Assembly (NCBI RefSeq): GCF_000162755.2
Contig: NZ_JH413796.1
Location: 1 to 50,289 of the forward strand
DNA length: 50,289 nt
Direction of reading: 5' to 3'
DNA from: Legionella drancourtii LLAP12
Lineage (GTDB): Bacteria > Pseudomonadota > Gammaproteobacteria > Legionellales > Legionellaceae
Position numbers and translations under genes: made by a program. The notes under the pieces were generated by a model, which did not search any database, had not been told where the DNA came from, and saw nothing but the letters and a program-made list of their open reading frames with translations. Below, in pieces: positions 1 through 33,232 of the stretch. Within the stretch, counting starts at the first letter, position 1. Every line of letters starts with the position of its first letter.

Positions 1-889
1 AGATCCTTGTTATTGAAATGCGAGAATGACCCATATCAAAGCTGAGGATTTGACGTGCTTTTCGATCTATTGCCTTTTCCGCTGCATTCATTTCTTTAAA
101 TTTTTTGCCACCTTCAAATGGACATGCCATTCCTTGTTTATTGGGATCAAAGGATTTAGTCAGCTCTCTATATCGCTCTTGCGCATAGGCATGTCTTAAA
201 CCATGTAGTTTACTGACCCCCATAGCTTTTGCTTGCTCTTCGTAATAACTTAGGTGTTGCTTATAAGTCCTATTGGACGGAATAAGTGACTCTCCTGCGC
301 GAACAAGTTGAGAAACCTTGGCTAACCATTGCCGTTGACCTTCCTTCGTTATGTTTAATGTGCGTCCAATACCTCCTTTTGTCCAGCTAGGTTTAATGAT
401 TAAATGATTGCCATGATGAGCTTCACTTAATGTAAATTTCATGGATTCTTCACGGCGTAGGCCAAAGAGCTTTTGACCCTCTAATGACAGCTTAATATAA
501 GGATCGGTGCATTTGGATAAATCGATATGATGAATTGCTTTATTAATGGTTGAAGCATACGAACGCTTGTTAATGCTGTACGCCGCATTATCTGACTTAA
601 CCAGTTTTGGATCGTTCAGTAAATAAGCTGTCTTTCGTAGTTTGGACATGTAGTTTTTAATTGTTCCTGGATTTTTGCCTTGTGATTTCCAATGTTCCAC
701 CAGCACATAGATGTGCTTTGCTTTTAATCCTTTAATGTGACCGATTTTATACCCTAGCTCATGTAAATCTTTGACGCATCGAAAGAGCATATGGCGCATG
801 TCTGCTTGGCTTGCATAGGAATGGCCATGAGCTTTTTTAACCAGTTCGTTAATTGAAAATTTTGCTGCGCGCAATTTTGTATTACTCAT
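1..889 (-). CDS. Tyrosine recombinase / integrase-domain protein (3' end cut by window)
   Basis: An open frame runs leftward from ATG 889 to the window edge (296 codons). The N-terminal half (about residues 1-100) looks like a SAM-like core-binding domain. The C-terminal half carries tyrosine-recombinase boxes: arginine in FGLRREE (about 145), HGLR with His229 and Arg232, and MGH with His288. The nucleophilic tyrosine should lie just beyond the edge. The start overlaps the stop of the upstream recombinase gene by 8 nt, so the two are probably co-translated. It differs from the tRNA-proximal integrase and more likely acts in DNA processing or rearrangement inside the element; that role is inference. 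Confidence 0.8.
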   Translation of the reverse strand, partial: MSNTKLRAAKFSINELVKKAHGHSYASQADMRHMLFRCVKDLHELGYKIGHIKGLKAKHIYVLVEHWKSQGKNPGTIKNYMSKLRKTAYLLNDPKLVKSDNAAYSINKRSYASTINKAIHHIDLSKCTDPYIKLSLEGQKLFGLRREESMKFTLSEAHHGNHLIIKPSWTKGGIGRTLNITKEGQRQWLAKVSQLVRAGESLIPSNRTYKQHLSYYEEQAKAMGVSKLHGLRHAYAQERYRELTKSFDPNKQGMACPFEGGKKFKEMNAAEKAIDRKARQILSFDMGHSRISITRI

Positions 890-1685
890 TAAGATAACTC
901 CAAAGCGTTCGCCTGGATTGTAGTCCCATTTCGCGCAGGATGGTTTGCTTTGCTAAATAAGGGGATAGAGTTTTGCTCAGCTCTGGATACATATTTTTGG
1001 CATAAACACCCCGATAGCTCTTGGATGAAGGTACACCTACTGCTTTCAATTCATTACTGTACGCGCCGCGTACAGAATGATACCCATACGTTAGAATTAG
1101 GTTTTGCTCTCTACATAAACTTAAAAGTGAGTTTTTCGTTTCTATTTGTGCCTCATTTCTAAAAGGGATCGTCCTATCGTGGCTGTTTGTAGCAATATCT
1201 CTTGTAATCCATAGTTGATGTTCTTGCACGTGAATGGTTGGGCATAGACGCATTGCTTCACTTAAAGTTAAACCAAAATGAATTTGTAGTTCGATCAATA
1301 TTTTTGCAGTAGGGTTTACTAGCCGATCAGAAATATCTTCTGGTAAATGAATTCCTGTTGAGCTGGATTTTTGGTTTTTAATTCCCATGCTTTGATTGCT
1401 AATATCTGGGATGGCATGCTCAATCTTTTGAAAAAAATCACGGATGATAGTCATGTACTTCATTATAGTTGATGGCTTGAGGCGCTCTTTTTGCCAATGT
1501 GTAACAAGGCGTTGAATATGTTCGTGAGTGATAGCATGCCATTTTGGTGGAACATGGCCTATATGAAATAAATCACGAATCATTTTGTGAAGCACAAAAT
1601 GACGGTGCTTTCTGGCTCGGTATGATCCAGTGTGATCATGATGGCAATAATGATCAACTTGTTGCCTGAGTTGGTTTTTTCTCAT
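882..1685 (-). CDS. Degenerate tyrosine-recombinase-like protein
   Basis: A 267-residue relative of the gene that follows it. ATG 1685 is chosen over the longer frame (to 1775) because AGAGG lies 8-9 nt upstream. The core-binding half includes a segment (about 68-90) parallel to its neighbour's. In the catalytic half the box I arginine is threonine (FGLT, residue 140) and the GH motif is GL (residue 255), while H-x-x-R (His203, Arg206) and a late Tyr264 remain. It is therefore probably inactive alone and may act as a partner or accessory DNA-binding subunit. It overlaps the next recombinase gene by 8 nt. Confidence 0.72.
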   Translation of the reverse strand: MRKNQLRQQVDHYCHHDHTGSYRARKHRHFVLHKMIRDLFHIGHVPPKWHAITHEHIQRLVTHWQKERLKPSTIMKYMTIIRDFFQKIEHAIPDISNQSMGIKNQKSSSTGIHLPEDISDRLVNPTAKILIELQIHFGLTLSEAMRLCPTIHVQEHQLWITRDIATNSHDRTIPFRNEAQIETKNSLLSLCREQNLILTYGYHSVRGAYSNELKAVGVPSSKSYRGVYAKNMYPELSKTLSPYLAKQTILREMGLQSRRTLWSYLNE

Positions 1686-2174
1686 TGGTATAACCTCTAA
1701 AACTATTTGCCCTGATATTGGTTTAGTGTTGGTAGAGCGGCCTGCAAGAGTGCGGTACCAGGCATGAAGCCTCAAGGCTCAGTTCAGGGGCAAATCAGTT
1801 TTAAACTGCAAACTTATATTGACCTGATAACATCGGTACTACTGAGTTTTTTGGGGGATGGCCTCCTTAGGTTGAAATGAGTTTAGGGGGCAACAAAGTC
1901 TATACGAATTCATTGTTGCGCATGGGGCAATACAGAAGAGGTATTGTGTGGTTCAATTCTTAAGAATTACATTACGTTGATTGCAATGAGCCCTGCAAAG
2001 TGCAGGTGTTGTTGTGTTCCCGACTTATCGTTCTGCCACAAGATTAAGGAATGAGGGTGGCTATTGCATAAGACCTATTGAGGTTTCGCCGGAATTGCGC
2101 CGGACTCATCAGTTATGCTTAATGAAAGATTAGCAAAACGATTTGTGTTGGACAAGGGGATTTTGATGATTATT

Positions 2175-2205
2175 TTGAGCAATCGCGTTGCATGCGATTG
2201 CTCAA
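2175..2205. repeat. 12-bp perfect inverted repeat, 7-nt loop
   Basis: TTGAGCAATCGC and its exact complement flank the loop GTTGCAT. No T-tract follows on either strand, so it does not read as a simple terminator. It sits about 150 bp upstream of the helicase gene and 45 bp from a second, stronger hairpin. Confidence 0.8.
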
Positions 2206-2250
2206 TCAAGAGTAGTATGTTGAATTTATTTGAAAATTTCGCAGTCCTTC

Positions 2251-2285
2251 GGCTGCGTCACTGCGGATATAGCAGTGACGCAGCC
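2251..2285. repeat. 14-bp perfect inverted repeat, 7-nt loop
   Basis: GGCTGCGTCACTGC pairs exactly with its complement across the loop GGATATA. The stem is clearly more GC-rich than its surroundings and no T-run follows. With the hairpin at 2175-2205 it forms a pair of equal-loop stem-loops just upstream of the helicase gene. Confidence 0.82.
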
Positions 2286-2358
2286 TGTTGTGATGCTTAA
2301 ATAAATTGCTGGGTAATTATGCTATATTTGAATGAGTTTGCAATTAAAGAGAGTCAGT

Positions 2359-5300
2359 ATGTCTAAGCTTGATTTATTTGAATTTGAGAATAAGCTCACT
2401 CGAAAAGAGGCTAAATCTGTTCTAATCGCATATCTGGCCTTAGACACAGTCAGTAATAATGAAGAACTTGATACGGATCTTATTGAGCAAATATATAAAT
2501 CATGGCGCGGTTGTTTAAGTGTAGTTCCTTTTGATGCAATTAACGCAGAGAGCGAACTGTGCTTACGTCAGCCTCAAATTTCTGCATTGTTTTCAATTTT
2601 AGCTCATTGTACAAATCATAAATCAGGAGATGCCACGGTTGTAATGCCTACTGGTACAGGAAAAACAGAGACTATGTTAGCGTCAATATGTAGTTTACCT
2701 GTAAAAAGAGCCCTAGTTATAGTTCCTACCATTAGCTTAAGACAGCAAACATTTAAAAAATTTTTATGCTTAGGTCGATTACGAGAGTTAAAAGCTATAA
2801 ATAAAAATACGTTAAATCCTATAACAGCATTACTGACCGGGGGAATATCAACTCAAGAGGAGTTAGATCTTGCCTTAAAAGCAAACGTAATAGTGACTAC
2901 TCCACAATCTTTAAATAAGGCTGATGAGCAGTTACGTACTAAGCTATTTAAAGAATGCTCACATCTTTTCGTAGATGAAGCTCATCACATAAGAGCTAAC
3001 ACATGGGAGCTTATTAAAAAGAAATTTATAAATAAGCCTGTAATACAATTTACTGCAACACCCTTTAGAGAAGATAGAAAAAAAATAGAGGGGTTGTTTA
3101 TTTATAATTACCCAATATCAGTTGCACAAGAACAAGGCTTTTTTAGGCCAATTAACTTTAAAGCTATCTATGAAATTCATGAAGAAAAAGCAGATAGAAA
3201 AATTGCAGAAGAGGCCGTATCTCGGCTTAGACAAGATTTATCATCTGGTTTTAATCATATTTTAATGGCTAGATGTAATACAAAAAAAAAGGCTGACAAA
3301 GTTTTCAAAATATATCAAGAAAACTATGATGCTCTAAATCCAATTTTGATACATAGCAGCGTACCTCAACGAGATAAAAAATTGCAGGCAATTATTGCAA
3401 AAAAACATAAAATTATTGTTTGTGTCGATATGCTTGGTGAGGGATTTGATTTGCCCGAACTAAAAATTTGCGCACTTCATGATATACATAAAAGCTTAGC
3501 AATTACTTTACAATTTGCTGGGAGATTTATTCGAGGAAGAGATGATCTTGGCGATCCTACATTCATTGCTAATATTTGTGATCAAAATGTTGAGGATGTT
3601 CTCAAAGATTTATACAAGGAAGATCCTGATTGGAACATGGTTTTAAAGCGCATCAGTGAAAGCCGTATCCAACATGAAATTGAAACCCAAAAAATGGAAT
3701 TAAGTGCTAGTAAAATGGGAGCAGATATTCCTTTAGACAACATTAACATGGCGCTTAGTACAGTAGTATATGAAGTTGATAAAGCTAATCTTAATGAGCA
3801 AACATCCTTTGTCCTTGAAAATCACGAAGAGCTTATTTCAAAAATAACTTTTTCAGATTCACAGTTAGTAATTTTAATAACAAAGATTGAAATTCAAACA
3901 AAATGGTCTCCTCAAGGTAATTTTACAATACCTGAGTGGCGTCTCATCGTGCTTTATCTAACTCAAAAAAACAACATGCTTTTTATCCATGATTCTTCGA
4001 AGTCAGGTTCAAGACAAAAGCTTGCTCAGTGTATATCTAAAAAAGCAAAGCTGCTTAAAGGAGATAATGTTTTTAAGTGTTTTGGAAACATTGAAAGATT
4101 AACCTTGCAGAACGCAGGTTTAAACAGAGGTAGAAGAGGCCCTCTCCGTTATGTAATGTATACTGGTATCGATATTGAATCTGCAATTAATGAATTAGTA
4201 CAAGGAGCTTCATATAAATCTAATCTATTTGGCAAGGGATATTATAACGGAAATAAAGTTAGCTTAGGGTGTTCTTATAAAGGTAGAATTTGGTCGATGA
4301 AATCCACATCCTTAGTAAATTGGATGATGTGGTGTGATGATATAGGGCAAAAACTAAAGGATCCCACAATAGATCCAAATTCAATTCTTAACAAAGTATT
4401 GCGCACTAAAGAAATAAGTACTTTTCCAGTTGGTTTGATTCCTATAGCAATCGATTGGCCTGATTATTACTATAAAAATGGTGATTTGTCAGAAATAAAT
4501 TTAGTGATTGGTGACGAAAAATTTTCCTTAGATGAAGCTGAGATAAAATTAATTGATTACACATCAAATTCAATAGCATTTATTATTCAATTCAAGAATA
4601 TCGAAGTTTCCTATAAATATGTACTTCAAAATCAATCTTATGTTGTTAAAAAAACTAGTAACAAAGAAATAAATATAGTTAAAAAGGACTTTTCTCAAGT
4701 AGCCTTACATGATGAGTTTTCTCAAAATTGTTCGCCTGTAGTATATTTTTCTGATGGTTCTAAAGTATTTGATAGCTTTCATATTGTAAGACCAGAAGGA
4801 TATACCATTCCACACATACATAAGGATTGTTTCGTTAAGTTTGAATGGACTATAGATATTCGTAAGGAGTCACAAGGAAGTACGAAGGATAGTAACTCTA
4901 TACAGTATGTGCTACTCAGTGAATTAAAACAAAAAAATTACTGGTTTATTTTTAATGATGATGGGGCTGGGGAAATTGCAGATATAGTTGCTTTTAAAGA
5001 AGAAAATGGACTCCTTTTAATAGAATTTTACCATCTTAAATTCTCGCAAAAGAGTTTAGCAGGATCAAGAATTGGTGATTTTTATGAAGTGTGTGGCCAA
5101 GTGATAAAAAATTGCAAATGGGTAGGTGAACTCGATAACATAATAAATCATCTTAAAGCGAGGGAGAGAAAGCGTATAAATCAAGATCAATCCTCACGTA
5201 TAGAACAAGGGGAGTATAGGAGTTTTGATCATTTGAAAGTACACGGAGGTAGGCTGAAAAAAGAATATAAAATTTTCATAGTTCAACCGGGTCTGGATAT

Positions 5301-5397
5301 TAATTTATTAAGTAATGATGTTGCTGCGTTGTTAGGGGCAACTGACCTATATGTTAGAGAAACAACAGGAAAAAATTTAACAGTCATTGCCAGTTAA
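2359..5397 (+). CDS. Large SF2 (DEAH) helicase with possible C-terminal nuclease motif
   Basis: A 1012-residue protein; ATG 2359 is preferred over 2332 because GAGAG lies just upstream. Helicase motifs are clear: Walker A PTGTGKT (about 97-103), VDEAHH (motif II, about 205-210), TATP (motif III, about 232) and QFAGRFIRGR (motif VI, about 385-394). The long middle part matches no domain I recognise. Near the C-terminus is GEIAD followed by IEFYHLK (D875, E889, H892, K894), which resembles a divergent PD-(D/E)xK-like active site; that is inference. It is a single gene with no methyltransferase or restriction partner beside it, is more AT-rich than the transfer genes, and is read against them. 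A one-gene anti-phage or anti-plasmid defence role is plausible but unproven. Confidence 0.8.
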   Translation: MSKLDLFEFENKLTRKEAKSVLIAYLALDTVSNNEELDTDLIEQIYKSWRGCLSVVPFDAINAESELCLRQPQISALFSILAHCTNHKSGDATVVMPTGTGKTETMLASICSLPVKRALVIVPTISLRQQTFKKFLCLGRLRELKAINKNTLNPITALLTGGISTQEELDLALKANVIVTTPQSLNKADEQLRTKLFKECSHLFVDEAHHIRANTWELIKKKFINKPVIQFTATPFREDRKKIEGLFIYNYPISVAQEQGFFRPINFKAIYEIHEEKADRKIAEEAVSRLRQDLSSGFNHILMARCNTKKKADKVFKIYQENYDALNPILIHSSVPQRDKKLQAIIAKKHKIIVCVDMLGEGFDLPELKICALHDIHKSLAITLQFAGRFIRGRDDLGDPTFIANICDQNVEDVLKDLYKEDPDWNMVLKRISESRIQHEIETQKMELSASKMGADIPLDNINMALSTVVYEVDKANLNEQTSFVLENHEELISKITFSDSQLVILITKIEIQTKWSPQGNFTIPEWRLIVLYLTQKNNMLFIHDSSKSGSRQKLAQCISKKAKLLKGDNVFKCFGNIERLTLQNAGLNRGRRGPLRYVMYTGIDIESAINELVQGASYKSNLFGKGYYNGNKVSLGCSYKGRIWSMKSTSLVNWMMWCDDIGQKLKDPTIDPNSILNKVLRTKEISTFPVGLIPIAIDWPDYYYKNGDLSEINLVIGDEKFSLDEAEIKLIDYTSNSIAFIIQFKNIEVSYKYVLQNQSYVVKKTSNKEINIVKKDFSQVALHDEFSQNCSPVVYFSDGSKVFDSFHIVRPEGYTIPHIHKDCFVKFEWTIDIRKESQGSTKDSNSIQYVLLSELKQKNYWFIFNDDGAGEIADIVAFKEENGLLLIEFYHLKFSQKSLAGSRIGDFYEVCGQVIKNCKWVGELDNIINHLKARERKRINQDQSSRIEQGEYRSFDHLKVHGGRLKKEYKIFIVQPGLDINLLSNDVAALLGATDLYVRETTGKNLTVIAS

Positions 5398-5520
5398 CCC
5401 AAATTAAAAACATTTGGATAAAAGTTGCGCTAATAAGCGCTATTGTATTATTCTAAACTCAGCAAGGGTTCATTCAGAAATTTTGCTTGGAGTATTGTTG
5501 TATTCATTAAGGATGTAATT

Positions 5521-5727
5521 GTGAAAAAATTGATTTTTGTTTTATTGTGTTTCCCTACCCTGATTTTTGCGGATCAAGCCGAAAAAAGTAGCGTAAAAAC
5601 ATTTGAGCAGTTGTGTAAAAATGCCAAGGATGTTTCTATGCGAGAGCATTACTGCAATCTTCTTGAACAACAGAAAAAAGCAGAGGCAATATTTAAAGAT
5701 TTTGAAAAAGATAAATCATCGACCTAA
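5521..5727 (+). CDS. Small secreted protein, unknown function
   Basis: The GTG at 5521 is chosen because AAGGA lies about 8 nt upstream and because it yields a clean signal peptide (VKKLIFVLLCFPTLIFA) ending before DQAEKSS. The mature part is about 50 charged residues with two cysteines (QLCKNA and HYCNLLE) that could form a disulfide in the periplasm. It converges with the leftward transfer genes. Similar small Cys-containing periplasmic proteins accompany conjugation loci, but no family is recognised. Confidence 0.6.
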   Translation: MKKLIFVLLCFPTLIFADQAEKSSVKTFEQLCKNAKDVSMREHYCNLLEQQKKAEAIFKDFEKDKSST

Positions 5728-5753
5728 TCATGTCAGATTGAATCGTTTTTTTT

Positions 5754-5784
5754 ATGGCATTGTCAGTTTATAGTTCAATGCCAT
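5754..5784. repeat. 9-bp hairpin between convergent genes
   Basis: ATGGCATTG and CAATGCCAT flank a 13-nt loop, between the ends of the small secreted protein gene and the DUF1845-like gene. A T8 run lies on the left side on the + strand, the wrong side for a rightward terminator, and reads as A8 on the - strand. It is therefore listed as a repeat rather than a terminator. Confidence 0.45.
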
Positions 5785-5797
5785 ATTTGGCTCTCAT

Positions 5798-6280
5798 TCA
5801 GCCCGAGATAATTCTACTGAGTGATTGGTTAGTAAGCTTTTGTTTTTGTTTCATGTGGGTGAAGTATGTTTGATCGGTCTCAAAACACCCGGCAAGCCGA
5901 AGTAATTTCAAAGTCGCAATGAGTTGGTCATAAACCTCAATCAACTCAGCTAATTTCATACTTAGGGGATTGCATACGATAATCCTCGGATAAAACTGCA
6001 CCACAAAATTAATCTGCTTGTCTTTAAACTCTTTTTTCTTAGAAAGAAGCATCTCAAAGTGTTTAATTTCAGAAGCAAATTCCTGGGTTAGCGCATTGAT
6101 CTGTTGCTCCATTTCATACAACATTTTAAGAGCTGCTGGCTCTTGCCTGCGACATCGCCCAATGACGATGTTCATCTTGTGCAAAATAGCCTCAATAAAA
6201 AGTCTATCTCCACTAATCCTTCTCTCGAATAACTTATACACTTCCCGTGTACGAAGGTTTAAAGTTATTTCTGCTTTCAT
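5798..6280 (-). CDS. ICE protein, DUF1845 / PFL_4669-like
   Basis: 160 residues starting at ATG 6280; GGAG seven nt upstream lies inside the end of traD and rules out the longer start at 6301. The beginning (LNLRTREVYKLF) and the later segments NPLSMKLAELIEVYDQL and LRLAGCF fit the DUF1845/AcaB-like and PFL_4669 families of ICE proteins. Some members of the AcaB group regulate transfer genes; others have no known role. It is the last gene of the leftward transfer block seen here, directly after traD. Family assignment by eye is moderate. Confidence 0.6.
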   Translation of the reverse strand: MKAEITLNLRTREVYKLFERRISGDRLFIEAILHKMNIVIGRCRRQEPAALKMLYEMEQQINALTQEFASEIKHFEMLLSKKKEFKDKQINFVVQFYPRIIVCNPLSMKLAELIEVYDQLIATLKLLRLAGCFETDQTYFTHMKQKQKLTNQSLSRIISG

Positions 6281-6281
6281 T

Positions 6282-8288
6282 TTAATCTCCAAGGTTATCA
6301 TTCAATTGGTTAATTGCACGAATAGCACTTTTGATATCCTTGGGGGCTAATCCATCGTTAACAGGTAAGGGGATTCTTACCTTATATAGCTCTCCGCCAT
6401 TCACTAAAACAAAGGCTTGACCTTTGGGTAACGAGATGATGTCGTTGACATCAATCATGTTGACTTGCGTAGTTTGTACTCGATCTTCGTTGGTGGTATT
6501 GAAGTAAACACCGTCCTCTCCGTGTGGGGTGTCGTTGACCATAGACACTTGAGAGTAATCAACTACGTCAACTTTTGGTAAAACTTTGACTAATAAATTT
6601 GCTGTTTCCTCATTTTTGACACGTAGCATGATAAGGGTGTTTAGGTTTCCCTCGGTTACTTCTGCTTTGGCTTTTGAGCCTAAAGCTACTTCCAAGTCTT
6701 GTTTAGTCTGTGCATAGGCTGTGACTTGAAATCCTGCCCCACCCGCCTTGTTTAAAATTTTTACGAAAGAGTCTTGGATGATTTCAGAAAGCTCATCGCA
6801 ATGTAAATTGAGGCGGTAGTGTGCGTTACTTTCTTTATATATTTTTCCTGCGGTGGATACCAAATCAGATAAGAAGGCTTTGCCGACTGCTTGAGCGATG
6901 TTGGGATTTGTTAGACTGTCTAATCCGATATAGATGACTTGTTTGTTTTTAATGGCACTCATTAGTTCAATTTCGCAAGAGCTTTGTTGAAACGAAAAGA
7001 TGCCTGATGCATTGCTTTTATTAATTTCAGACAATACAGGGCCAATGCTGGCTGTGATTTTATCGTAATAACTTTTGTCCATGATGGCGGCATCAAACAG
7101 ATCAATGATCACTTGATCATGAAGGCTTTCAACATTACCAGAGGTAATAGTTTTGCTGATGTATTCTTGCAAATATTGAACGACTGCTTTTGATCGACTC
7201 ATAGGTGGTGGGGTCTTGCCGTATTTGTCTATGCGGCAATCATTATTGGCTATGATTTCATCTATTGCTTCGTGATAATTTGGATCGTGTGTAGGCAGTG
7301 TAAAATCTGCATAGGTCATGAGTAGTTGATCCAGACGACTAACATAAAATGCTATAGACCTATAAGAAATCGGTTGCCTCATTTCTTCAAGACAAAGTGC
7401 CACGATGTTGGCGTATTTCCAGGCAAACGCGGCAAACTGTTTGCCTTCACCTTCGGCTTGAATTGCATCGGTAATGCGCGTAGCGACTTCACTGACTTGA
7501 TCGTAGTTTTTTAATGGATTGTAATGAGCGGATAATTCAGGAAAACCTAAGTGTACCACTCTAAAATCATGCAATCTTCCACTAGCACGACAGGCAGAGT
7601 ACATATCGCGCACTAAATCTAAATCGCCCTTGGGATCAACAACAATAATCGCGTCCCCATTTCTAATATCCTGATTGATTAGGATACTAGCCAGTCGTGT
7701 TTTACCCACGCGAGTTGTACCTACTACAAAGGTATGCCCAACACGTACTTCTTGTGGAATAGCGATAGAGCTGTCTTGCTCGCCTAATCCATGCAGATAG
7801 GAGCTGCCTCCTACGGGTGGATCAGGTCTAAATGGATTTAATTGTGATGGTTTATTAAGGAGTTTGGCCAATAGAGTCTCCTCATGGTTTTTACAATAGT
7901 TTCGTGCTGCGCGATAGTAGATACTGCGTTGCATAAACGATTCGTTTCTAATTTGTTTGATTTGCTGAAGGCGTTGAGTGTGATGGGGAAGCCAGCGAAA
8001 ACCTTTGCCAAGAAAAAGCCATTTCTTTGAAACTGGAATTTCTGTGGTAGATAAAGCGTAATACGGCATGGCAATTAATCTTTTATGATAGCGTTTAATA
8101 CGCAATCCTTGATAGCCTCGTATAAGGCTTAGAGTCATGAGGCTTAACCCTGCGTAATAACCCATACCTTGAGTCAGTAAAAAAAGATAAGGCTGTGTTA
8201 TGGTCAGTGTTGCCAGTGCACCACAAGTTAAACTGGTATAAAGTTCCGTGGGTTCTCGTAATAGATTTTCAACAGGGTATTGGCTCAT
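6282..8288 (-). CDS. traD: Type IV coupling protein TraD (SXT/TOL-type)
   Basis: The coupling ATPase brings the relaxosome to the mating-pair channel at the inner membrane. In this 668-residue protein, hydrophobic segments near the N-terminus (about 20-60) are followed by Walker A GTTRVGKT (about 190-197), Walker B IIVVDPKGD (about 214-222) and the glutamine-containing AYAQTKQD motif of TraG/TraD ATPases. ATG 8288 is chosen because GGAGG lies 5 nt upstream; three in-frame starts are possible. In related ICEs traD usually lies beside the PFL_4695/TIGR03747 genes. Here it is downstream of TraG with a small membrane gene, a rearranged order. Confidence 0.92.
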   Translation of the reverse strand: MSQYPVENLLREPTELYTSLTCGALATLTITQPYLFLLTQGMGYYAGLSLMTLSLIRGYQGLRIKRYHKRLIAMPYYALSTTEIPVSKKWLFLGKGFRWLPHHTQRLQQIKQIRNESFMQRSIYYRAARNYCKNHEETLLAKLLNKPSQLNPFRPDPPVGGSSYLHGLGEQDSSIAIPQEVRVGHTFVVGTTRVGKTRLASILINQDIRNGDAIIVVDPKGDLDLVRDMYSACRASGRLHDFRVVHLGFPELSAHYNPLKNYDQVSEVATRITDAIQAEGEGKQFAAFAWKYANIVALCLEEMRQPISYRSIAFYVSRLDQLLMTYADFTLPTHDPNYHEAIDEIIANNDCRIDKYGKTPPPMSRSKAVVQYLQEYISKTITSGNVESLHDQVIIDLFDAAIMDKSYYDKITASIGPVLSEINKSNASGIFSFQQSSCEIELMSAIKNKQVIYIGLDSLTNPNIAQAVGKAFLSDLVSTAGKIYKESNAHYRLNLHCDELSEIIQDSFVKILNKAGGAGFQVTAYAQTKQDLEVALGSKAKAEVTEGNLNTLIMLRVKNEETANLLVKVLPKVDVVDYSQVSMVNDTPHGEDGVYFNTTNEDRVQTTQVNMIDVNDIISLPKGQAFVLVNGGELYKVRIPLPVNDGLAPKDIKSAIRAINQLNDNLGD

Positions 8289-11809: not shown

Positions 11810-12877
11810 TTAACTCCTAACGTTTTTGAGGAAACCCACTTTGGGGAATGAAAGTGAGCGGATAAATTTCCCTTCATGTTGAATGCAGCCTCGGTATTTG
11901 CGCCAAATCACAAACACATAATTTCCATTTCCGGCTTGCTCATCTTCTATGCCCATATCAGTGGCATCATTGAAATTGATGTTGCGGTTTTTTGGGTAGA
12001 CCTCTTGCCAAATGATGTTTTTGTTGTGTGCATCAAATATCACATTAGATACCACGCAATTAGGACCACAGGCATTGTTGGTACTTTGAGTCACATGAAG
12101 GCTGTTTTTATTGGTGACAATGTCAGCGGCATGTAAGGCCGCGACCATAGAGGCTCTAAATCGTGAGGGGTGAGTCACTCGCATCAATCTTGGGATTTCA
12201 TGCCCCCAGATTTGGGTTGTGCTGCCAATATCGTGGTTAAATAGCAAATGAGGATGGGTGGCCATATAAGCAATTTCAGCTAATTCTGTGCGATCTGATA
12301 CTGCATCGGCTTCGCTTAAATAGTAGGGGTATCCAAAACGTGTTTCAGGTTTATGTGATAGATACGGTAAACGATACAAACCAGCTGGACTACCAATAAC
12401 ATCCACAACACGTGTACGTTCTTCATTCATGTGCATGGCATTGGTTTGGCCAGCAGCATCACCAAAACCTAGTTCTGAACCAGTCGCTAATTTATAGGCT
12501 TTCTGATACAGCGCTTGGCTTGCTGGATTTTCATAAAGAGCTTTTGCCTCAATCCAGGGATTGGTTTCAGGGCGATTGGCCACAGTGACAATCAAATCCG
12601 GCATGAATTGTTCTATCGCAGGAACGGCCACCAGTTTAGGAGGAAATCTCCCTACCGCCCAAGTGCAAGAGCCGATCACTTTATAGTGGCTGTTGCTAAA
12701 GAGTTTGCTTAAAACTTTAGTTGCAATACCAAAACTGCTGATAGAGTGAGGAGGCTCTATACTCTCTGTTGCATGAAGATTGGTGCTAATCATCATAGAA
12801 ACAAGCATCATTGTTTTGACTTTGTTTTTTGTTCTCAAGTTGTTCCGCAATAAGTTCAGCAGCTTTAAGGACATCAT
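11810..12877 (-). CDS. TraU-like ICE protein (TIGR03756 / PFL_4710 type)
   Basis: About 355 residues. Exported proteins of this family are needed for DNA transfer in F-like systems. Recognisable parts are GSCTWAVGRFPPKL near the N-terminus, many conserved cysteines, AALHAADIV, and FVIWRKYRGC near the end. The start at 12877 has GGAG 7 nt upstream but gives a long basic leader before the hydrophobic segment; ATG 12811 gives a shorter leader with a weak ribosome site. Either start lies inside the end of the VirB4 gene (91 or 26 nt overlap). The thioredoxin-like gene (TIGR03757 type) usually found before it is missing. Confidence 0.85.
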   Translation of the reverse strand: MMSLKLLNLLRNNLRTKNKVKTMMLVSMMISTNLHATESIEPPHSISSFGIATKVLSKLFSNSHYKVIGSCTWAVGRFPPKLVAVPAIEQFMPDLIVTVANRPETNPWIEAKALYENPASQALYQKAYKLATGSELGFGDAAGQTNAMHMNEERTRVVDVIGSPAGLYRLPYLSHKPETRFGYPYYLSEADAVSDRTELAEIAYMATHPHLLFNHDIGSTTQIWGHEIPRLMRVTHPSRFRASMVAALHAADIVTNKNSLHVTQSTNNACGPNCVVSNVIFDAHNKNIIWQEVYPKNRNINFNDATDMGIEDEQAGNGNYVFVIWRKYRGCIQHEGKFIRSLSFPKVGFLKNVRS

Positions 12878-15564
12878 GTTCTTTCTCCAAGGCATAACGT
12901 TCTGCTTTTTCTGATTTTTCATTCATAAGAAGGGCAAGCAGGTAACGGGGTGGAATGACACGAAATAATCCTTGATAACGTGAACCTAACAAGACCGCTT
13001 CCGCATATAAGCCTTTTTGTGAATCAATGTCCCTGATTAAGTCTTCTTGTTGCGGAGTTAACTGTTTAAATTGTTTGACGTCATTAATTTCTTTTTCATC
13101 CAGACCTAATAAAATCCAGGTTTCAATCAGCGATAAAATTTTGGTGGCTTTTTCTGAGTTCATATCGGTGACGTTTTGCGTAATGGCAACAAGCCACAAT
13201 CCGAGTTTTCTTGCGACTTTCGCTACCAAAAGACAGCTGGTGACAACGGAGGGAATTTGAAATTGCAGATGTGATTCGTCAATAAAGAGAAAGGTAGGTC
13301 TGTTATCGTTTTGGGTTGCCTCTGCCATAGCCAGAATTCGAGGCAATAGAGACACCATAACCAAAGCCAGTTTTCCGGTATCGTCTTTAATGGCTGAAAT
13401 ATCAATGTGGAAAATATCAAAGTCGCCTAAGGGCTCTGTTGGCACATTAAAAAAGCGTGATTTGGCACTATTAATTACATAGCTGTTCAAGCGGTCATGC
13501 ATATCCAGAATACGGTCTTTTTTGCGGGCAACCGTTTCTAGTTCTATTCGCCGTTTAAAAGCGGCGACCACATGCTCAGTCAACATTTGTGGCACATCAT
13601 TGTTGAATGAAGTTAAAATAGCATCGCTTAATACTTCAATTAAGAGTGTTTCATCCGCCAAGGTAAATTGCTCTTCTTCCAATGCATTGGCTTCGGTAAT
13701 CATCGTCCGTAAAGCTAAAGCAAGCTCTGCCAAATAGCTTTGTGAACCTTCATCATTGGCAAATTCGCTCACATTGGCTGGTTGTGCAAGATTCCCTTTT
13801 AATTCCATCATTTTTTGAGCAATGCGAGCTGCTTCTGCTGCGTTTAAATTGTCGCTGAGTTCAGGAATTGCTTTGTATGCCTCACAAAATGGATTTAACG
13901 GAACTGCTTCACCTTTTTTTATTGCTGAGTAACAACTGCTTGGTTTTTTTTGCCATGAGCTTTGGCGTGAATGAGCATACGATCAAAGGAGTTACCCATT
14001 TCAAAAAGAATGATGCGTGCATTTTTGGTGGCCATAAGAGAATTAATCATCCAGCCTGTAGCCACTGATTTACCGCCACCCGAATTGGCAAATAATGCCA
14101 TATGGGAGTTTTGGCTGATAAAATCATGATGCAAGACATCAAACAGCACTGGTTCTCCCAAGCGGTTAAAAAGGTGAAGCAGGGCAGGTGTCTTGCACCT
14201 TGATTACGGCCATAAACGGGCAGCAGTGCTGCCAATTCTGAGGCATACATCAGCCTGTCAAAACGTAAATACTGACGAGCGTATTGAGGGATAAAATTAA
14301 AAGGCAAGGCATTCAAATAACTGTTCATTGGGTGAAGGTCAAAACAGGAAGGAATCAAAGGCATTTTGGCTTCAATAAATAAGTCCTTGAGTTCTTTTTC
14401 AATCTGAAGAGCTTCTTCGTTTGTTTGAGCGCGATAAAATATGGCCTGATTGACCCAAAATAAACGATTTCCCATAGACAGTTCATCGCGTGCTGTTTTG
14501 ATATCCTCTCTGACTTGCTGTGGCTTAAGACTGGTTCCAACAATTCCTTTTTCCAGACGCATCAAATGAGCATCCAAAGTTTCATCATTACCAAAGGTAA
14601 CTTGGATGGTATAGGTTGCTCCCTCTGGTAATTTATCCAGCAAAGCATATCGGTGCTTCGGATTGGCTTGAGATTTCTCACGAGAAATAAGCCCAATTTC
14701 GGGTGCTTCTTTTAATCCATCAACATACAAAATACGTTGATGAGTGCCATCAAAAATGAAGCCTTGCTCAGCACTTTGAGGTTCATGAAACAAAACATTC
14801 TGGCTTAAACTGTATCCGGCAGGTTTTTTGTTTGTGGGATAAGGAAAGCGGCTCAGGATTTCCTCTGGATTAGAATTAAACCAGCGTACCCACCATTGAT
14901 AATAATCTTTTCCGGTTAGTCTTTTCAGTTGAAGCCCAGGTGATTTTAATTTGCTTTCAATTTGTGCGATGACTTCCTGATGCTCAATCAGGGCATTGTC
15001 GCGTGTTGTTTGGGTTTGTTGATATAAACGGTAAAACAAAACCCGTACCCGTCTTCGTCTGCCACGATAAGGCGCATCGGTTTTGGGATCAACAAACAAA
15101 CCATTCGGTCTGGTCATTTTGGAAAACAGATCATCAAGACGAGACAGATAATCACGGGTAAACGGTGTTGTGGCAATTTCTGGTGCAATGCTTTGTTGAA
15201 TATGATGAAGGACTGGTTTTAAACAATACTCGTCATTGACATACATTTGCATAATCCAGGGATCTTCCTTATGCAAAGGAACAACGGTTGCAAACGTATC
15301 TTTGATTTTGTTAAAGACAGCATTCAAATGTTCTTTGGAGGCTGCTTCTGCCGGAATACTGGCTAACTCAAAGCCTGAACCAATACTGATGCCGTCATTG
15401 AGTAAGAAGAGATTGAGTTCGTCATTAAAATCAACAATAGAAAGCATATCGGGAAATGACGGATTAGGGCTTTCAAATCTTTTTTTGATGCTTTGCTCTG
15501 TAAGCACAGCCAGGCTTTTCTTGCCTACCAGCCAATCACTTATTTGATTCACGAGTGATATCAT
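12786..15564 (-). pseudogene. VirB4-type conjugative ATPase (TIGR03744 / PFL_4706), split by two frameshifts
   Basis: Three consecutive pieces in three frames together make one ATPase of about 926 residues, the normal family length. Piece 1 (15564 to about 14186) holds the N-terminal half up to VYGRNQGARH. Piece 2 (about 14185-13921) carries Walker A NSGGGKS. Piece 3 (about 13919-12786) starts at KKGEAVPLNPF and carries Walker B FLFIDESH and the C-terminal ITQN motif. Each junction is repaired by restoring one base: near 14183-14188 (ACACC/TGCCC) and near 13920 beside an A7 run. The intact protein would energise pilus assembly at the inner membrane. With these deletions neither half could make a working ATPase, unless they are sequencing errors. 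Confidence 0.85.
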
Positions 15565-24603: not shown

Positions 24604-25266
24604 ATGGATATCAGAGAACAAATAGGTAATCGTATTACCAAAGCCCGTAAAGAGTTGGGTATTACGATTAAGGAGTTAGCTGCAAGAACGGTAACGCTTT
24701 CACCTGCAAGGATTAGTAATTGGGAGCAATGCACGCGAAGCCCTGGTCCTTTAGAAGCCAAATTGCTTGCAGAACAATTGGGAGTTTCTGCTTCTTATTT
24801 GTTGTGCTTAACGGATAATCCTCAAGGAGATCTGATCCAGAATCCTGAAAATAAGTTTCGGCACATCCCTATACTGAATACGAAAGAAGCGCTTCATGCC
24901 AGAGAAATTTTAGGACAACAAGAACCCTTTATTTTTGAAAAAACAATTTTGGTTGATTCACTGAATCCCTCGATTAAAAGCTTAGCTTTATTTGCCACCT
25001 CAGTGGACGATAGCAGTATGCAACCAGAGCTTACCCCAGGAGATGTAGTCGTTATTGATGGAGATTTACAACCTAATCCAGGCCACTATGTTTTAGTTTA
25101 TTTAACCCAGAAAAAACAGACTGTATTACGCCGATATGGAGAAGCTGATGGCTATCATTTTCAGTTATTAGCAAGTAGTGATTTATGGGCAACAGTCAGT
25201 ATTAAGGACGCTCAAGAGGCTCAGATAATAGGGGTCGTTGTAGAGATTAGAAAGTATCTACAGTGA
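24604..25266 (+). CDS. lvrR: LvrR-type CI/LexA-like repressor
   Basis: 220 residues with AAGGA upstream. The N-terminal XRE helix-turn-helix (about 8-62, LGITIKELAARTV then SPARISNWEQ) binds DNA. The C-terminal S24-like domain (about 125-220) has DDSSMQP with Ser138 and PGDVVVIDGD, and is used for dimerisation. The usual catalytic lysine position is arginine (TVLRRYG, about 176), and the Ala-Gly cleavage pair is not seen in the linker (EALHARE). Self-cleavage after DNA damage therefore looks unlikely. The gene faces away from lvrA across a dyad and keeps the transfer genes off, by analogy with other lvr cassettes. Its end is close to the first cargo gene. Confidence 0.85.
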   Translation: MDIREQIGNRITKARKELGITIKELAARTVTLSPARISNWEQCTRSPGPLEAKLLAEQLGVSASYLLCLTDNPQGDLIQNPENKFRHIPILNTKEALHAREILGQQEPFIFEKTILVDSLNPSIKSLALFATSVDDSSMQPELTPGDVVVIDGDLQPNPGHYVLVYLTQKKQTVLRRYGEADGYHFQLLASSDLWATVSIKDAQEAQIIGVVVEIRKYLQ

Positions 25267-25322
25267 TTTTTGGTATTGATGCTGATGTTTCCTGGAGCAG
25301 GATTGACATAAGTGGAGTTTCT

Positions 25323-26642
25323 ATGAATAAAGACCTAATACAAAGGATGCAAGAGTTAATTAATTTTTATGTCCAAGATAAAGAATTCATGGGGACTGTA
25401 TTGGTTGCCCAAGATAATGATATTCTTGTGCATCAGGGATATGGATTTGCTAATATAGAGTGGACTGTTCCGAATGATACAAACACAAAGTTTCGTCTCG
25501 GTTCTCTTACAAAGCAATTTACAGCCGCCGGCATTTTGCTGCTCGAAGAGCGCGGCTTATTGAAGACGGATGATTATATCACACAGTACCTGCCTGACGC
25601 GCCGAAGGCATGGAGCAATATAAAACTATTTCATTTGCTTAATCATACGCATGGTATTCCAAACTACACACAACTTCCCGAGTTTAGAGCAATAACTCTT
25701 TGCACAAAAACGCCCTATGAGCAAATACAACTCTTTATCGATAAACCCTTAGATTTTGAGCCTGGAACACACTATTGCTATAATAATTCTGGTTATGTAG
25801 TACTTGGATTTCTGATTGAGCAATTAACTGGGCAATCGTACGCGCACTTTATTCATGACGCTATCTTTGCCCCTTTAAATATGAACGACTCAGGATATGA
25901 TTCTTTTACAGAAATTATACCTTATCGCGCATCAGGGTATTTAAAAGATCCTGATGCACAAATAACGAATGCAGAATACTTGGATATGAGCTTGCCCTAT
26001 GCTGCTGGTTCACTTTATTCAACGACAGAAGACTTATTGAAATGGACACAAGGACTATTCAATTTTAAGCTTGTGTCTGCTAACTCCGTGAAAAAGATGA
26101 CTACATCCTTTATGGATCACTATGGATTTGGTGTTGAAGTCAAAGAGATTGATGGCATTAACGTAGTGATGCACATCGGAGGCATCAATGGGTTTCACAC
26201 AGCACTCATTTATGTGCCATCTACTAAGACAACCATCGTGGTTTTATCCAATTTGAATACTTTTGGTTATGTTTGGGACATAGGGTTTATAGCTCAAAAC
26301 ATTGCCTTGAAATTACTTTCGGTGGTACATGGCATAGAGGTGACTCTTCCATCGGAAAAATGCTCGATAAAGGACACTTCTGAAACCCTCGAGCAATATG
26401 TTGGAGAATACGACATTAAGCTGAATTTGAAACTGATCATCACGTTAAACAATGGCCAACTCGAAGCGGCCTTTTCTAATCAGCCTGTTATTACACTTCA
26501 TGCGCAAACAGAAGCGATATTTTATTCTATTTTACCTGACATAAGATTTCAATTTTTACGAAACAAAGCGGGGCACGTGGTGCAAGTTTATTTATCTCAA
26601 AGTGGATATGAGTTAAAAGGAACAAAGATAAATGACAGATAG
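25323..26642 (+). CDS. Serine hydrolase, beta-lactamase (class C-like) family
   Basis: 439 residues; ATG 25323 is chosen for its GGAG at 5-nt spacing rather than the longer frame from 25263. Active-site elements are S61-LTK64, Y153-N-N155 and HIGG (284-287), the set expected of penicillin-binding-protein/class C-like esterases and peptidases. A beta-barrel-like C-terminal extension (about 365-439, EQYVGEYDIKLNLK) recalls DUF3471. No signal peptide is visible, so it is probably cytoplasmic and not a classical beta-lactamase; substrate unknown. It is the first cargo gene after lvrR and overlaps the next gene by 11 nt. Confidence 0.85.
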   Translation: MNKDLIQRMQELINFYVQDKEFMGTVLVAQDNDILVHQGYGFANIEWTVPNDTNTKFRLGSLTKQFTAAGILLLEERGLLKTDDYITQYLPDAPKAWSNIKLFHLLNHTHGIPNYTQLPEFRAITLCTKTPYEQIQLFIDKPLDFEPGTHYCYNNSGYVVLGFLIEQLTGQSYAHFIHDAIFAPLNMNDSGYDSFTEIIPYRASGYLKDPDAQITNAEYLDMSLPYAAGSLYSTTEDLLKWTQGLFNFKLVSANSVKKMTTSFMDHYGFGVEVKEIDGINVVMHIGGINGFHTALIYVPSTKTTIVVLSNLNTFGYVWDIGFIAQNIALKLLSVVHGIEVTLPSEKCSIKDTSETLEQYVGEYDIKLNLKLIITLNNGQLEAAFSNQPVITLHAQTEAIFYSILPDIRFQFLRNKAGHVVQVYLSQSGYELKGTKINDR

Positions 26643-27219
26643 AACCAACGAAAAATTACAAAAACACATTAGGTTCTGCGCCCCAATTTATTTTCGCAAT
26701 TTATCAGAGCAAGACTTTCCATCTCTTTTAAAATGGTTAGAAACGCCCCATGTCAAAACCTGGTGGGATAATGAAGTGGTTTGGACACTAGATAAAATCT
26801 CTCAAAAATACAGCAGTTATGTAAACCAATATAAGATAGAAAATGGAAAGAAAAAATCCATTTTTGCTTTTATTATTGTGCTGGATGAGCAACCCATAGG
26901 ATATATTCAGTATTATGATGCGCGCGCTTTTCTTCCTCTACCTGCTAATAAGACTTTTGATTTCAAAAAAATAGCCGCCATTGATTTTTATCTTGGTGAA
27001 GAATCAGTTTTAGGACAGGGGATTGGCAGCGCAGCATTGATGCAATTTGTCCAGCATACTGTTTTTCAGCAATTTGATACAGCACTAGTCACGCCAGATA
27101 TTAAGAATCACAGTGCAATCGCCTGTTATCAAAAGGCAGGATTTATTCCTTGCTTAACAAAAGAAGAAACCCATGAGCTATGGTTAATCGCAAACAAGGA
27201 AGTATCTCATGTCTACTAA
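26632..27219 (+). CDS. AAC(6')-like GNAT acetyltransferase
   Basis: 195 residues. FPSLLKWLETPHVKTWWDNE at the N-terminus, the acceptor-site helix PIGYIQYYD, the acetyl-CoA loop GQGIGSAA and the C-terminal SAIACYQKAGF follow the layout of AAC(6')-Ib-type aminoglycoside acetyltransferases. It would transfer acetyl from acetyl-CoA to an amine of an aminoglycoside or related compound. Whether it confers resistance cannot be told from sequence. It overlaps its neighbours by 11 nt on both sides, indicating one operon. Confidence 0.78.
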   Translation: MTDRTNEKLQKHIRFCAPIYFRNLSEQDFPSLLKWLETPHVKTWWDNEVVWTLDKISQKYSSYVNQYKIENGKKKSIFAFIIVLDEQPIGYIQYYDARAFLPLPANKTFDFKKIAAIDFYLGEESVLGQGIGSAALMQFVQHTVFQQFDTALVTPDIKNHSAIACYQKAGFIPCLTKEETHELWLIANKEVSHVY

Positions 27220-28117
27220 TCACCTCAACACGCTTAAAAACACCGTATCGTTGGTACATGGTGATGTTGGAACACAATGGTGGCAGCGCTTACCTCAATT
27301 TCTTGAGCACCTTGCTCGTACACAGAAGCTTACCTTACTGACCCCGTTTGAACATTTAAGTTTCAACTACGTGCTTCCAGTTTTAGGTCCAAAAGAAGAG
27401 GAATGGGTATTAAAAGTTAATGTTCCTCATAATGAATTCTCAAAAGAAATTCATGCATTAAGACATTTTAATGGGAGAGGTTCAGCTCGATTAATTGCTG
27501 CAAATCCTGAAGAAGGTTGGATGCTCATTGAGCGTCTGTTGCCAGGAACACGATTGGTCGATGTGCTTGATGAGCAGCAAGCTATTCCCATTGCAGTAAG
27601 TGTCATGCAACGTTTGTGGACACCGGTTACAGAACCACTGCTTTTTATTTCATTAGAAGAATGGCTTGGATGTTTGGAACAGCTTGATGCTCAAGCATCA
27701 TTACAACAATTGGTCAGCAAGAAACTCAGGGATTTTGTGATTAGTCGTACAAAAGAACTGATATCAAGTCAAGGCGAGCCAGTTCTGTTGCATGGTGATC
27801 TGCATCACTACAACATTTTACAGCATCAATCAGAATGGCTGGCAATTGATCCTAAGGGGATTGTTGGCGAAAGAGAATTTGAAATCGGTGCTTTTTTAAG
27901 AAATCCATTCTGTGTGGTTGAGGACCCGCTTGAAACCAAAGAATTAGCACGCAACCTGGATTGGGTCATTGACTTGACTGCATTTAATCGGGAACGTGTC
28001 TTAAGCTGGTGTATTATTCAAGCTATTTTATGTGTTTGTTGGTATGTTGAGGACGCTATGCTTGATAAAGCGCGTCAGCTTACGGCTTATGCCGAGCGAC
28101 TGTATTCATTAATTTAA
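27209..28117 (+). CDS. APH(6)-like streptomycin/hydroxyurea kinase family
   Basis: 302 residues. The catalytic loop HGDLHHYN (195-202) and the metal-binding LAIDPKGIVGE (Asp about 214) are characteristic of streptomycin 6-kinases. FNGRGSARLIAANPEEGWMLIERL matches the region linking the two lobes of APH(6). The N-terminal lobe has EWVLKV for the ATP lysine. It probably phosphorylates streptomycin or a similar alcohol; activity is not proven. It lies between two acetyltransferase genes in the cargo operon. Confidence 0.82.
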   Translation: MSTNHLNTLKNTVSLVHGDVGTQWWQRLPQFLEHLARTQKLTLLTPFEHLSFNYVLPVLGPKEEEWVLKVNVPHNEFSKEIHALRHFNGRGSARLIAANPEEGWMLIERLLPGTRLVDVLDEQQAIPIAVSVMQRLWTPVTEPLLFISLEEWLGCLEQLDAQASLQQLVSKKLRDFVISRTKELISSQGEPVLLHGDLHHYNILQHQSEWLAIDPKGIVGEREFEIGAFLRNPFCVVEDPLETKELARNLDWVIDLTAFNRERVLSWCIIQAILCVCWYVEDAMLDKARQLTAYAERLYSLI

Positions 28118-28129
28118 TTTGGAAAACAG

Positions 28130-28678: not shown

Positions 28679-28714
28679 ATGGTGATTTAGCTGTAGTGAC
28701 TTACGAGAGAAAAG

Positions 28715-29714: not shown

Positions 29715-29729
29715 AGAGAGGTTTTTTAA

Positions 29730-31369: not shown

Positions 31370-31405
31370 TCTTTTTTAGTAATTGGATAGATTGTTTGAG
31401 TGAGT

Positions 31406-32386: not shown

Positions 32387-32433
32387 TTTATTAATATATT
32401 ACCTCAATTAATAGAAATTATTGGAGTCATTTG

Positions 32434-33114: not shown

Positions 33115-33154
33115 ATAACAACGTGCATACAGAAGAAGATATAGGATTGACCTC

Positions 33155-33232
33155 ATGACACATATATATTTTATAGGTGGTGATAGCGGCAGTGGTAAAA
33201 TAGCTGTAATACCGCATTTAAAAGAAGTTTGA
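33155..33232 (+). pseudogene. Remnant of a P-loop kinase gene (25 codons)
   Basis: A 26-codon frame, MTHIYFIGGDSGSGKIAVIP then a short tail and TGA, carries a perfect Walker A (GGDSGSGK) preceded by the usual hydrophobic strand, then stops. No rest of a kinase follows in any frame before the next gene at 33240. It is therefore best read as a decayed N-terminal fragment, probably of an adenylate-kinase-like cargo gene. A real micropeptide is less likely. Confidence 0.5.

What the first reader, a model, noticed from the sequence alone, without database searches (positions are those of the whole stretch)
2359..5397. Single-gene helicase with possible nuclease tail as an ICE-borne defence candidate
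A 1012-residue protein with full SF2 helicase motifs ends in a GEIAD ... IEFYHLK segment like a divergent PD-(D/E)xK site, with no partner gene, in an ICE and against the direction of the transfer genes. The long middle region matches no domain I recognise. It could be a one-protein anti-phage system not yet named; several known systems use helicase plus nuclease.
Basis: partly seen in the sequence, partly recalled or inferred. Interest (0 to 1): 0.72.

Follow-up and report, generated by a model that had tools for sequence, protein, structure and literature searches.

The report
Unnamed helicase-nuclease family in defence islands
A gene carried by a mobile DNA element encodes one large protein, a DNA-motor part joined to a probable DNA-cutting part, and belongs to a widespread family whose members often sit among bacterial anti-virus genes, so it is a good candidate for a one-protein defence not yet named.

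Summary
The window encodes an intact 1012-aa protein (ATG 2359; frame open from 2332, 1021 aa) with SF2 helicase domains (ResIII 3.9e-27, Helicase_C 1.7e-9), opposite to an ICE's transfer genes. Residues 445-1021 match nothing significant in Pfam or in PDB sequences. Full-length relatives occur in many bacterial phyla, on plasmids and in a haloarchaeon, hardly ever in phage records. In two alignments (67 and 12 rows) W839, E846, E881, D884, H901, K903, V920, Q923 and Q985 of the tail never vary. Neighbours are rich in defence genes: 207 PADLOC models hit among 113 neighbour ORFs, against 37 among 114 neighbours of UvrB in the same 29 genomes (model counts inflate this). It is not Hna, Hachiman, Gabija or type I/III restriction by the tests run, and no PADLOC-2023 model covers it full length. 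Best reading: a single-protein helicase-nuclease defence family, Hna-like in plan but not homologous beyond helicase motifs. The nuclease fold and phage protection remain unproven.

The parts
2346..2353 (+). Shine-Dalgarno-like AAAGAGAG 5 nt before ATG 2359
   Evidence: sequence printed
2359..5397 (+). gene for the helicase / putative nuclease (1012 aa; frame open from 2332 = 1021 aa)
2560..3069 (+). RecA-like domain 1 (ResIII/DEAD, residues 77-246; Walker A GTGKT 108-112, DEAHH 215-219)
   Evidence: Pfam ResIII 3.9e-27; K111, D215, E216 in 67 of 67 rows, though helicase peptides were the search patterns
3259..3534 (+). RecA-like domain 2 (Helicase_C, residues 310-401; Q394, G397, R398, R401)
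   Evidence: Pfam 1.7e-9; invariant columns
3664..4806 (+). middle region, residues 445-825, no known domain
   Evidence: no Pfam family in more than 1 of 40 members, no PDB match below E 1.9
4012..4431 (+). conserved core of the middle region, residues 561-700 (G596, G612, G636, G646, G651, W654, W667 invariant in 67 rows)
4432..4806 (+). most variable segment after residue 76, residues 701-825; candidate recognition/trigger module (inference)
   Evidence: mean identity 22.5% over 2211 pairs against 37.7-48.5% for the RecA domains, residues 561-700 and the tail
4807..5394 (+). C-terminal domain, residues 826-1021, putative PD-(D/E)xK nuclease not in Pfam
4957..5040 (+). catalytic-type core D876-D877..G880-E881-x-A-D884 ... 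H901-x-K903
   Evidence: E881, D884, H901, K903 identical in 67 of 67 and 12 of 12 rows; D877 in 67 of 67 but 11 of 12
5427..5440 (+). weak terminator-like hairpin after the gene
   Evidence: pattern scan only; 5 found against a mean of 2.3 in shuffles of 1700-5850

Best explanation
The gene is cargo of an ICE and encodes a stand-alone defence effector. An SF2 (ResIII-type) ATPase/translocase senses or travels along foreign DNA, or a DNA intermediate made by phage or plasmid replication. A variable middle module sets what triggers it. A C-terminal PD-(D/E)xK-type nuclease (E846, D884, H901-x-K903, Q923) then cuts DNA. Shown here: intact gene, helicase domains, invariance of the tail residues, a conserved middle core with a variable segment, broad patchy distribution, defence-gene neighbourhoods. 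Inferred: the nuclease fold, DNA as substrate, the trigger, and whether the outcome is clearance or abortive infection. Abortive infection gated by the ATPase, as described for Hna, is my preferred form, but no call bears on it.
For: Helicase domains. W839, E846, E881, D884, H901, K903, V920, Q923, Q985 identical in 67 of 67 and 12 of 12 rows; the search patterns were helicase peptides, so tail invariance is not a search artefact. Chou-Fasman averages give strands at 871-874, 886-888, 895-903 and 979-986, where the four core strands would be. Profile alignment to Mrr_cat pairs D884 with the Mrr D and HLK/HCK with QCK (score 17.7, reached by 1 of 60 column-shuffled controls). Neighbours: 207 against 37 PADLOC models at E<=1e-20 (113 and 114 ORFs); among the 25 of 207 listed are DrmA/DrmD, GajB, type III REase, BrxHI/HII, DRT, HmaA and DpdE. 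Type III Res gene 50 bp upstream of the close relative L013; a BREX-1 set (DUF1819, DUF1788, BrxC, PglX, PglZ, BrxL) beside the Sinorhizobium copy; in three E. coli loci looked at, beside retron Ec78 PtuAB, beside an R-M S subunit at a tRNA-Leu island, and among type I R-M remnants at a tRNA-Phe island. Patchy: 1 of 274 Gammaproteobacteria, the seed genome itself; 14 of 5426 E. coli genomes for one subtype. Gene GC 0.329 against 0.411 for the transfer region suggests recent cargo.
Against: No structure could be computed. The Mrr match is weak (E 0.058), and an unrelated comparison (middle region against Mrr) reached 0.066. SduA scored 19.9 but outside the catalytic core; three HamA sequences gave nothing. 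The crude secondary structure writes strand, not helix, at 857-861 and 915-922, where the fold needs its two core helices. HxK replaces the usual ExK/QxK. Q858, D877, W930 and G960, invariant in 67 rows, vary in the 12-row set. PADLOC model counts inflate the contrast: one ORF alone hit 28 models, and the control also hit models such as mad3, MTase_II, SspA and DndA. Some plasmid copies have no evident defence neighbour (Klebsiella, Bernardetia, Pseudonocardia). No phage-protection data exist.
Confidence: 0.6

Rival explanations
1. ATP-dependent restriction enzyme of type IV or type I/III-like logic: the middle region reads a DNA mark or site, the helicase translocates, the tail cuts. This is still defence, but sequence- or modification-directed rather than triggered by replication intermediates.
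For: Best PDB match by single-sequence search is 7clg 'Putative helicase' (E 2.7e-7), which I recall as the type IV enzyme SauUSI; PADLOC mREase_IV 1.2e-6; R-M genes among frequent neighbours; variable segment 701-825.
Against: No methylase, SRA or PLD domain found in the protein; all these matches lie in the helicase part; no methylase among the 26 window ORFs scanned (25 of the 45 listed at 150 aa or more, the gene itself included, plus one of 94 aa).
Confidence: 0.2
2. Accessory DNA repair or recombination helicase (RadD/XPB/UvrB-like) with a processing nuclease, not a defence protein.
For: Profile hits to XPBII, RadD and UvrB structures in the helicase part; an AddA/AddB-like pair upstream in a subset of loci.
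Against: RadD equivalog score 38.4 against cut-off 720; rare and patchy; often on plasmids; neighbourhood unlike that of UvrB in the same genomes.
Confidence: 0.1
3. Weapon of the element itself: restricts rival plasmids or ICEs, or protects the element, with phage defence secondary.
For: ICE-borne here; 54 of 182 matching plasmid records hold a match over at least 80% of the query; almost absent from phage and viral collections.
Against: Also chromosomal, in E. coli islands (15 of 16 places on chromosomes), one beside retron Ec78.
Confidence: 0.08

Closest known systems
Hna (SMa2245, Sinorhizobium meliloti, 845 aa)
   Same: Single protein, N-terminal SF2 helicase, C-terminal PD-(D/E)xK-type nuclease, broadly but sparsely distributed (PMC13381803: abstract, introduction, results part 1 of 3; PMC12445080: passages)
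   Different: No sequence similarity beyond helicase motifs (BLASTP best E 6.4; profile alignment only residues 68-222, E 6.8e-5). Hna is described as DinG/XPD-like and has Helicase_C_2; this one has ResIII + Helicase_C. Hna's K729 lies in E-C-K; this family has H-x-K.
Type III restriction Res subunit / type I HsdR
   Same: ResIII SF2 motor joined to a C-terminal nuclease
   Different: No RE_endonuc (PF19778) domain and no methylase partner found in the window; in L013 the type III Res gene is a separate neighbour
SauUSI-type type IV restriction enzymes (PDB 7clg; that name is recalled)
   Same: Single polypeptide with an SF2 helicase; top single-sequence PDB match (E 2.7e-7)
   Different: Similarity only over residues 82-404; no PLD or SRA-like domain detected
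Hachiman (HamAB)
   Same: Helicase plus PD-(D/E)xK nuclease (recalled)
   Different: Two genes (recalled); HamA PF08878 not found in the tail of any of 40 members; profile comparison with three HamA sequences null
Mrr family catalytic domain (PF04471)
   Same: D ... (Q/H)-x-K order and spacing (19 residues here, 20 in the Mrr row printed)
   Different: Not detected by Pfam in any of 40 members scanned; HxK instead of QxK

Membership tests
Hna | Full-length homology to SMa2245 | tested here: not met
   BLASTP best E 6.4; profile alignment limited to RecA1 motifs. The Hna ORF was identified by its length of 845, its place and K at 729
Hna | DinG/XPD-type second helicase domain (Helicase_C_2) | tested here: not met
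   (Hna has PF13307) against (this protein has PF00271)
Hna | C-terminal PD-(D/E)xK nuclease | tested here: inconclusive
   invariant residues and register support it; helices not predicted; structure tool off
Hna | Abortive infection triggered by phage SSB | not testable with these tools
   described for Hna in PMC13381803; bench only
Hachiman | HamA (PF08878) nuclease beside the helicase | tested here: not met
   no PF08878 in the tail nor in the ORFs next to the gene
Gabija | OLD/TOPRIM nuclease plus UvrD-type helicase | tested here: not met
   ResIII helicase, no TOPRIM or UvrD domain; no Gabija model among the 12 listed
Type I/III restriction | Cognate methylase (and S subunit) in the operon | tested here: not met
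   none among the 26 window ORFs scanned (the other 20 ORFs of 150 aa or more not scanned); type I/III genes are neighbours of some relatives
Type IV modification-dependent restriction | Modified-base reading domain | tested here: inconclusive
   middle region matches no known domain
RadD repair helicase | NCBIfam RadD equivalog cut-off | tested here: not met
   38.4 bits against 720
Any PADLOC-DB 2023 defence family | Full-length model match | tested here: not met
   best PbeA 1.8e-11, residues 98-246 only
[quoted passage not shown]
   motif invariant, strands compatible, core helices not predicted, Mrr alignment in register but E 0.058

The most novel reading that the evidence does not exclude
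An unnamed, cross-phylum, single-protein immune family: a ResIII-type motor, a previously undescribed two-part middle module (conserved core plus fast-changing segment) that recognises the invader, and a new nuclease family with an HxK site. One lineage has recruited an AddAB-like helicase-nuclease pair upstream and become a multi-gene system.
Probability: 0.5. Interest if true: 0.66.

Novelty: new variant of a known kind. Interest (0 to 1): 0.52.

Why it matters
Helicase-nuclease fusions are a recurring solution in bacterial immunity, and the structure and biochemistry of Hna, a single-protein case, were published only in 2026 (PMC13381803). A second family with the same plan but a different motor and an unassigned nuclease domain would test whether ATP-gated nuclease activation is a general principle. 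About 575 of its residues lie in regions without a Pfam entry and are clear targets for structure work. Relatives in E. coli (14 of 5426 genomes at 80% coverage for one subtype; 8 for another) and in Methylophaga make it testable outside listed pathogens.

Tried and rejected
Hna membership was my first idea (Rhizobium-rich hits, same plan). I located SMa2245 as an 845-aa ORF in pSymA (gene number from passages of PMC12445080; ORF; its residue 729 is K) and rejected homology beyond helicase motifs. Hachiman was rejected. PADLOC gave helicase-only matches. Profile comparisons with Mrr, SduA and HamA: only Mrr gave a register-correct alignment; SduA scored 19.9 (1 of 60 controls as high) but outside the catalytic core, so I give it no weight. 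The known PD-(D/E)xK sets did not find each other either (E 0.16 to 0.63), so failure of this method is not evidence against the fold. A constant partner was sought among 1143 neighbour ORFs of 80 loci: none is universal; the largest family is UvrD-like (10 of 80; 9 directly upstream). The 421-aa gene downstream in E. coli had no tblastn match in the other loci then held. The Rhizobium phaseoli stand-alone hit looks like the tail of a decayed copy (the similarity begins inside the domain, residue 930 is G), not a solo nuclease. One of the two full-length 'phage' records (MD-2021a, CAKLQH) has paa and other metabolic genes around the match and looks like bacterial chromosome; I did not open the other. 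Left att site of the ICE: no repeat of the tRNA-Arg region in the window.

Rows dropped: of 81 loci with full-length matches (80 genome, 1 viral) 5 had an interrupted frame and 10 intact ones were left out of the 67-row alignment to limit size and redundancy; A3 and A4 hold 40 of the 67. For the neighbour test 30 of 80 loci were chosen and 29 used, one genome having no UvrB over the cut-off; up to two ORFs of at least 150 aa per side, each cut at 650 aa, in both sets. PADLOC listings show 25 of 207 and 25 of 37 families. In script 100 only 15 of 29 Mrr, 5 of 8 SduA and 18 of 29 UvrB sequences were recovered by position; script 101 used 30 Mrr and 9 SduA.

Literature: searches listed no paper that, by title or start of abstract, names this family; one search listed 15 of 47 papers. 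Open-access PMC only. Seen: PMC13381803 abstract, introduction, results part 1 of 3, data availability; passages of PMC12445080, PMC12458937, PMC9519451, PMC9122126 and PMC10952713; listings for the rest.
Full report
WHAT IS THERE. The frame 2332-5397 (+) encodes 1021 residues without interruption. Residues 77-246 match ResIII (3.9e-27) and DEAD (2.6e-19), 310-401 match Helicase_C (1.7e-9). NCBIfam and PHROGs hits lie within residues 16-477. The gene has GC 0.329 and GC3 0.232, against GC 0.411 for the 5.8-24.4 kb transfer region, and stands opposite to it: TraD (TIGR03754, 1.6e-271), TraC/VirB4-like ATPase ORFs, TIGR03752, TIGR03749, TIGR03747 and TIGR03759 are all on the - strand. It is therefore probably recent cargo of an ICE, one of whose integrases lies at 44560-45717 beside tRNA genes. 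The flanking sequence carries a RhoGEF-domain ORF and an HMG-CoA reductase ORF, and the tRNA region is 98.8% identical over 84 bases to a Legionella adelaidensis record (next best about 89%, Photobacterium). I infer a Legionella-like host; no call identifies it, and no whole genome is held.

THE FAMILY. tblastn finds 182 plasmid records, 54 of them with a place covering at least 80% of the query, all below 60% identity. Of 217 matching phage records 2 cover at least 80%; the one opened looks like bacterial chromosome. Closest are Methylophaga sp. OBS3 (55%) and Modicisalibacter (53%). A tree of 67 sequences mixes phyla: Pseudomonadota need 6 changes and Bacteroidota 5; a planctomycete MAG copy (L033) and a Rhodocyclus copy (L047) are about 0.1 changes per site apart. 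Several rows are MAGs, so binning error is possible. Five of 81 full-length copies have a broken frame. Distribution is sparse: 1 of 274 Gammaproteobacteria (the seed genome; tail profile, E<=1e-10), and 14 and 8 of 5426 E. coli genomes at 80% coverage for two subtypes. For comparison, at the same E-value Shedu SduA_C was in 8 of 229 and HamA in 3 of 274 genomes of the class.

ANATOMY. In the 67-row alignment the RecA domains average 47.3 and 48.5% pairwise identity, residues 561-700 37.7%, the tail 826-1021 38.2%, while 446-560 (27.6%) and 701-825 (22.5%) vary more; 701-825 is also the lowest segment after residue 76 among the 85 pairs above 50% identity. The middle matched no Pfam family in more than 1 of 40 members and no solved structure below E 1.9. 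The tail matched none in more than 2 of 40, none significantly, and no solved structure below E 1.1. Yet W839, E846, Q858, D877, E881, D884, H901, K903, V920, Q923, W930, G960 and Q985 are identical in 67 of 67. In a second alignment of 12 rows that includes more divergent plasmid copies, Q858, D877 and G960 change in the haloarchaeal row and W930 in two rows, the other nine holding. The helicase invariants are partly a product of the search peptides; those of the tail are not. Crude Chou-Fasman averages put strands at 871-874, 886-888, 895-903 and 979-986, as a PD-(D/E)xK core would have them; but they write strand rather than helix at 857-861 and 915-922, where that core needs helices.

IS THE TAIL A NUCLEASE? 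A profile of the tail was compared with Mrr catalytic domains collected from the same class (30 sequences). The best local alignment (E 0.058, score 17.7) puts D884 on the Mrr D and H-L/C-K on Q-C-K; one of 60 column-shuffled tails scored as high. A comparison of the unrelated middle region reached 0.066, so the score alone is weak; the register is the stronger point. SduA gave a similar score outside the core and HamA gave nothing. I put the nuclease at about 0.75.

NEIGHBOURS. No gene is constant among 1143 neighbour ORFs of 80 loci. Recurrent families, with one member each checked by Pfam where stated: a UvrD-like gene (10 loci, 9 directly upstream on the same strand; PF00580), a SNF2-type helicase with a NOV_C domain (8), tyrosine recombinases by the look of their C-termini (8), a DNA methylase (6), a type III Res gene (5, among them L013) and a DUF6361 gene (4). 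The UvrD-like protein checked ends in a PDDEXK_1 match, and a PDDEXK_1 gene precedes it in 4 loci; the gap to the helicase gene is -3 to +15 bases in 8 of 9. This is a multi-gene version found mostly in alphaproteobacteria. In 29 genomes, 113 neighbour ORFs matched 207 PADLOC models at 1e-20, against 37 for 114 neighbours of UvrB. Models overlap, so the ratio is inflated. The listed kinds differ: DISARM, GajB, type III REase, BREX helicase, DRT, HmaA and Dpd on one side; on the other mad3, CARF-type, SspA/DndA, RtcR-like, PD-T4-6 and one MTase_II model, most of which I take to be common enzyme families. Individual loci agree: a BREX-1 set, AbiE, type I R-M, retron Ec78. Not all do: the Klebsiella, Bernardetia and Pseudonocardia plasmid copies have no evident defence neighbour.

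COMPARISON. Hna is the nearest in plan: one protein, SF2 motor, C-terminal PD-(D/E)xK, a 3'-5' ssDNA exonuclease restrained by ATP and released by a phage SSB (PMC13381803: abstract, introduction, results part 1 of 3). But the 845-aa Hna ORF shares only helicase motifs with this family. It works, I think, like Hna; it is not Hna. The failed tests for other systems are in the membership table. My nine answered paper searches listed no paper naming the family, but the library lacks most subscription journals, and the PADLOC copy is from 2023, so a recent name is possible.

VERDICT. A real, intact member of a widespread family without a function that I could find described, with good circumstantial evidence for defence and fair evidence for a tail nuclease. 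Defence in some form about 0.85; the full helicase-plus-nuclease mechanism as stated 0.6.

Noticed in passing
window 12789-13811 and 14050-15564 (-): The TraC/VirB4-like transfer ATPase is split over two ORFs, each matching a different part of TIGR03744; the ICE may be unable to transfer itself. Only described.
   Followed up: no
window 25263-42698: Cargo with resistance-type folds: three phosphotransferase (APH) ORFs, a class A beta-lactamase-like ORF, a serine beta-lactamase/esterase ORF, a double GNAT, an MFS transporter. The three scanned against NCBIfam score below its resistance cut-offs.
   Followed up: no
window 2-889 and 885-1775 (-): Two adjacent tyrosine-recombinase-like ORFs (Phage_int_SAM_2; the first also Integrase_1) at the left end, besides the integrase at 44560-45717.
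   Followed up: no
window 48683-49588 (-): RhoGEF-domain ORF (8.2e-14) in the flanking sequence, unusual for a bacterium and effector-like.
   Followed up: no
window 5801-6301 (-): AcaB / PFL_4669-like ORF, above the Pfam but below the NCBIfam cut-off, overlapping the end of the TraD frame by 20 bases.
   Followed up: no
window 5443-5727 (+): 94-aa ORF downstream of the helicase gene on the same strand, with a signal-peptide-like stretch by eye and no Pfam or NCBIfam match.
   Followed up: no
L048 3583-14270; L175 14541-29954: Gene run AddB-like, AddA-like UvrD, helicase of this family, then (L048) DUF6361; in Sulfitobacter preceded by TerB-N, ATP-binding and DEAD/DEAH genes. A possible multi-gene defence system in its own right.
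   Followed up: partly
L010 8001-8417: Apparent remnant of the C-terminal domain annotated as a hypothetical protein; similar short matches on a series of Rhizobium plasmids.
   Followed up: yes
L278 18435-19700, L280 15435-16700, L003 11024-12289: A 421-aa gene follows the E. coli copies by 152 bp on a plasmid and at two chromosomal sites (412 and 420 of 421 positions identical to the L278 copy, which has no Pfam match).
   Followed up: partly
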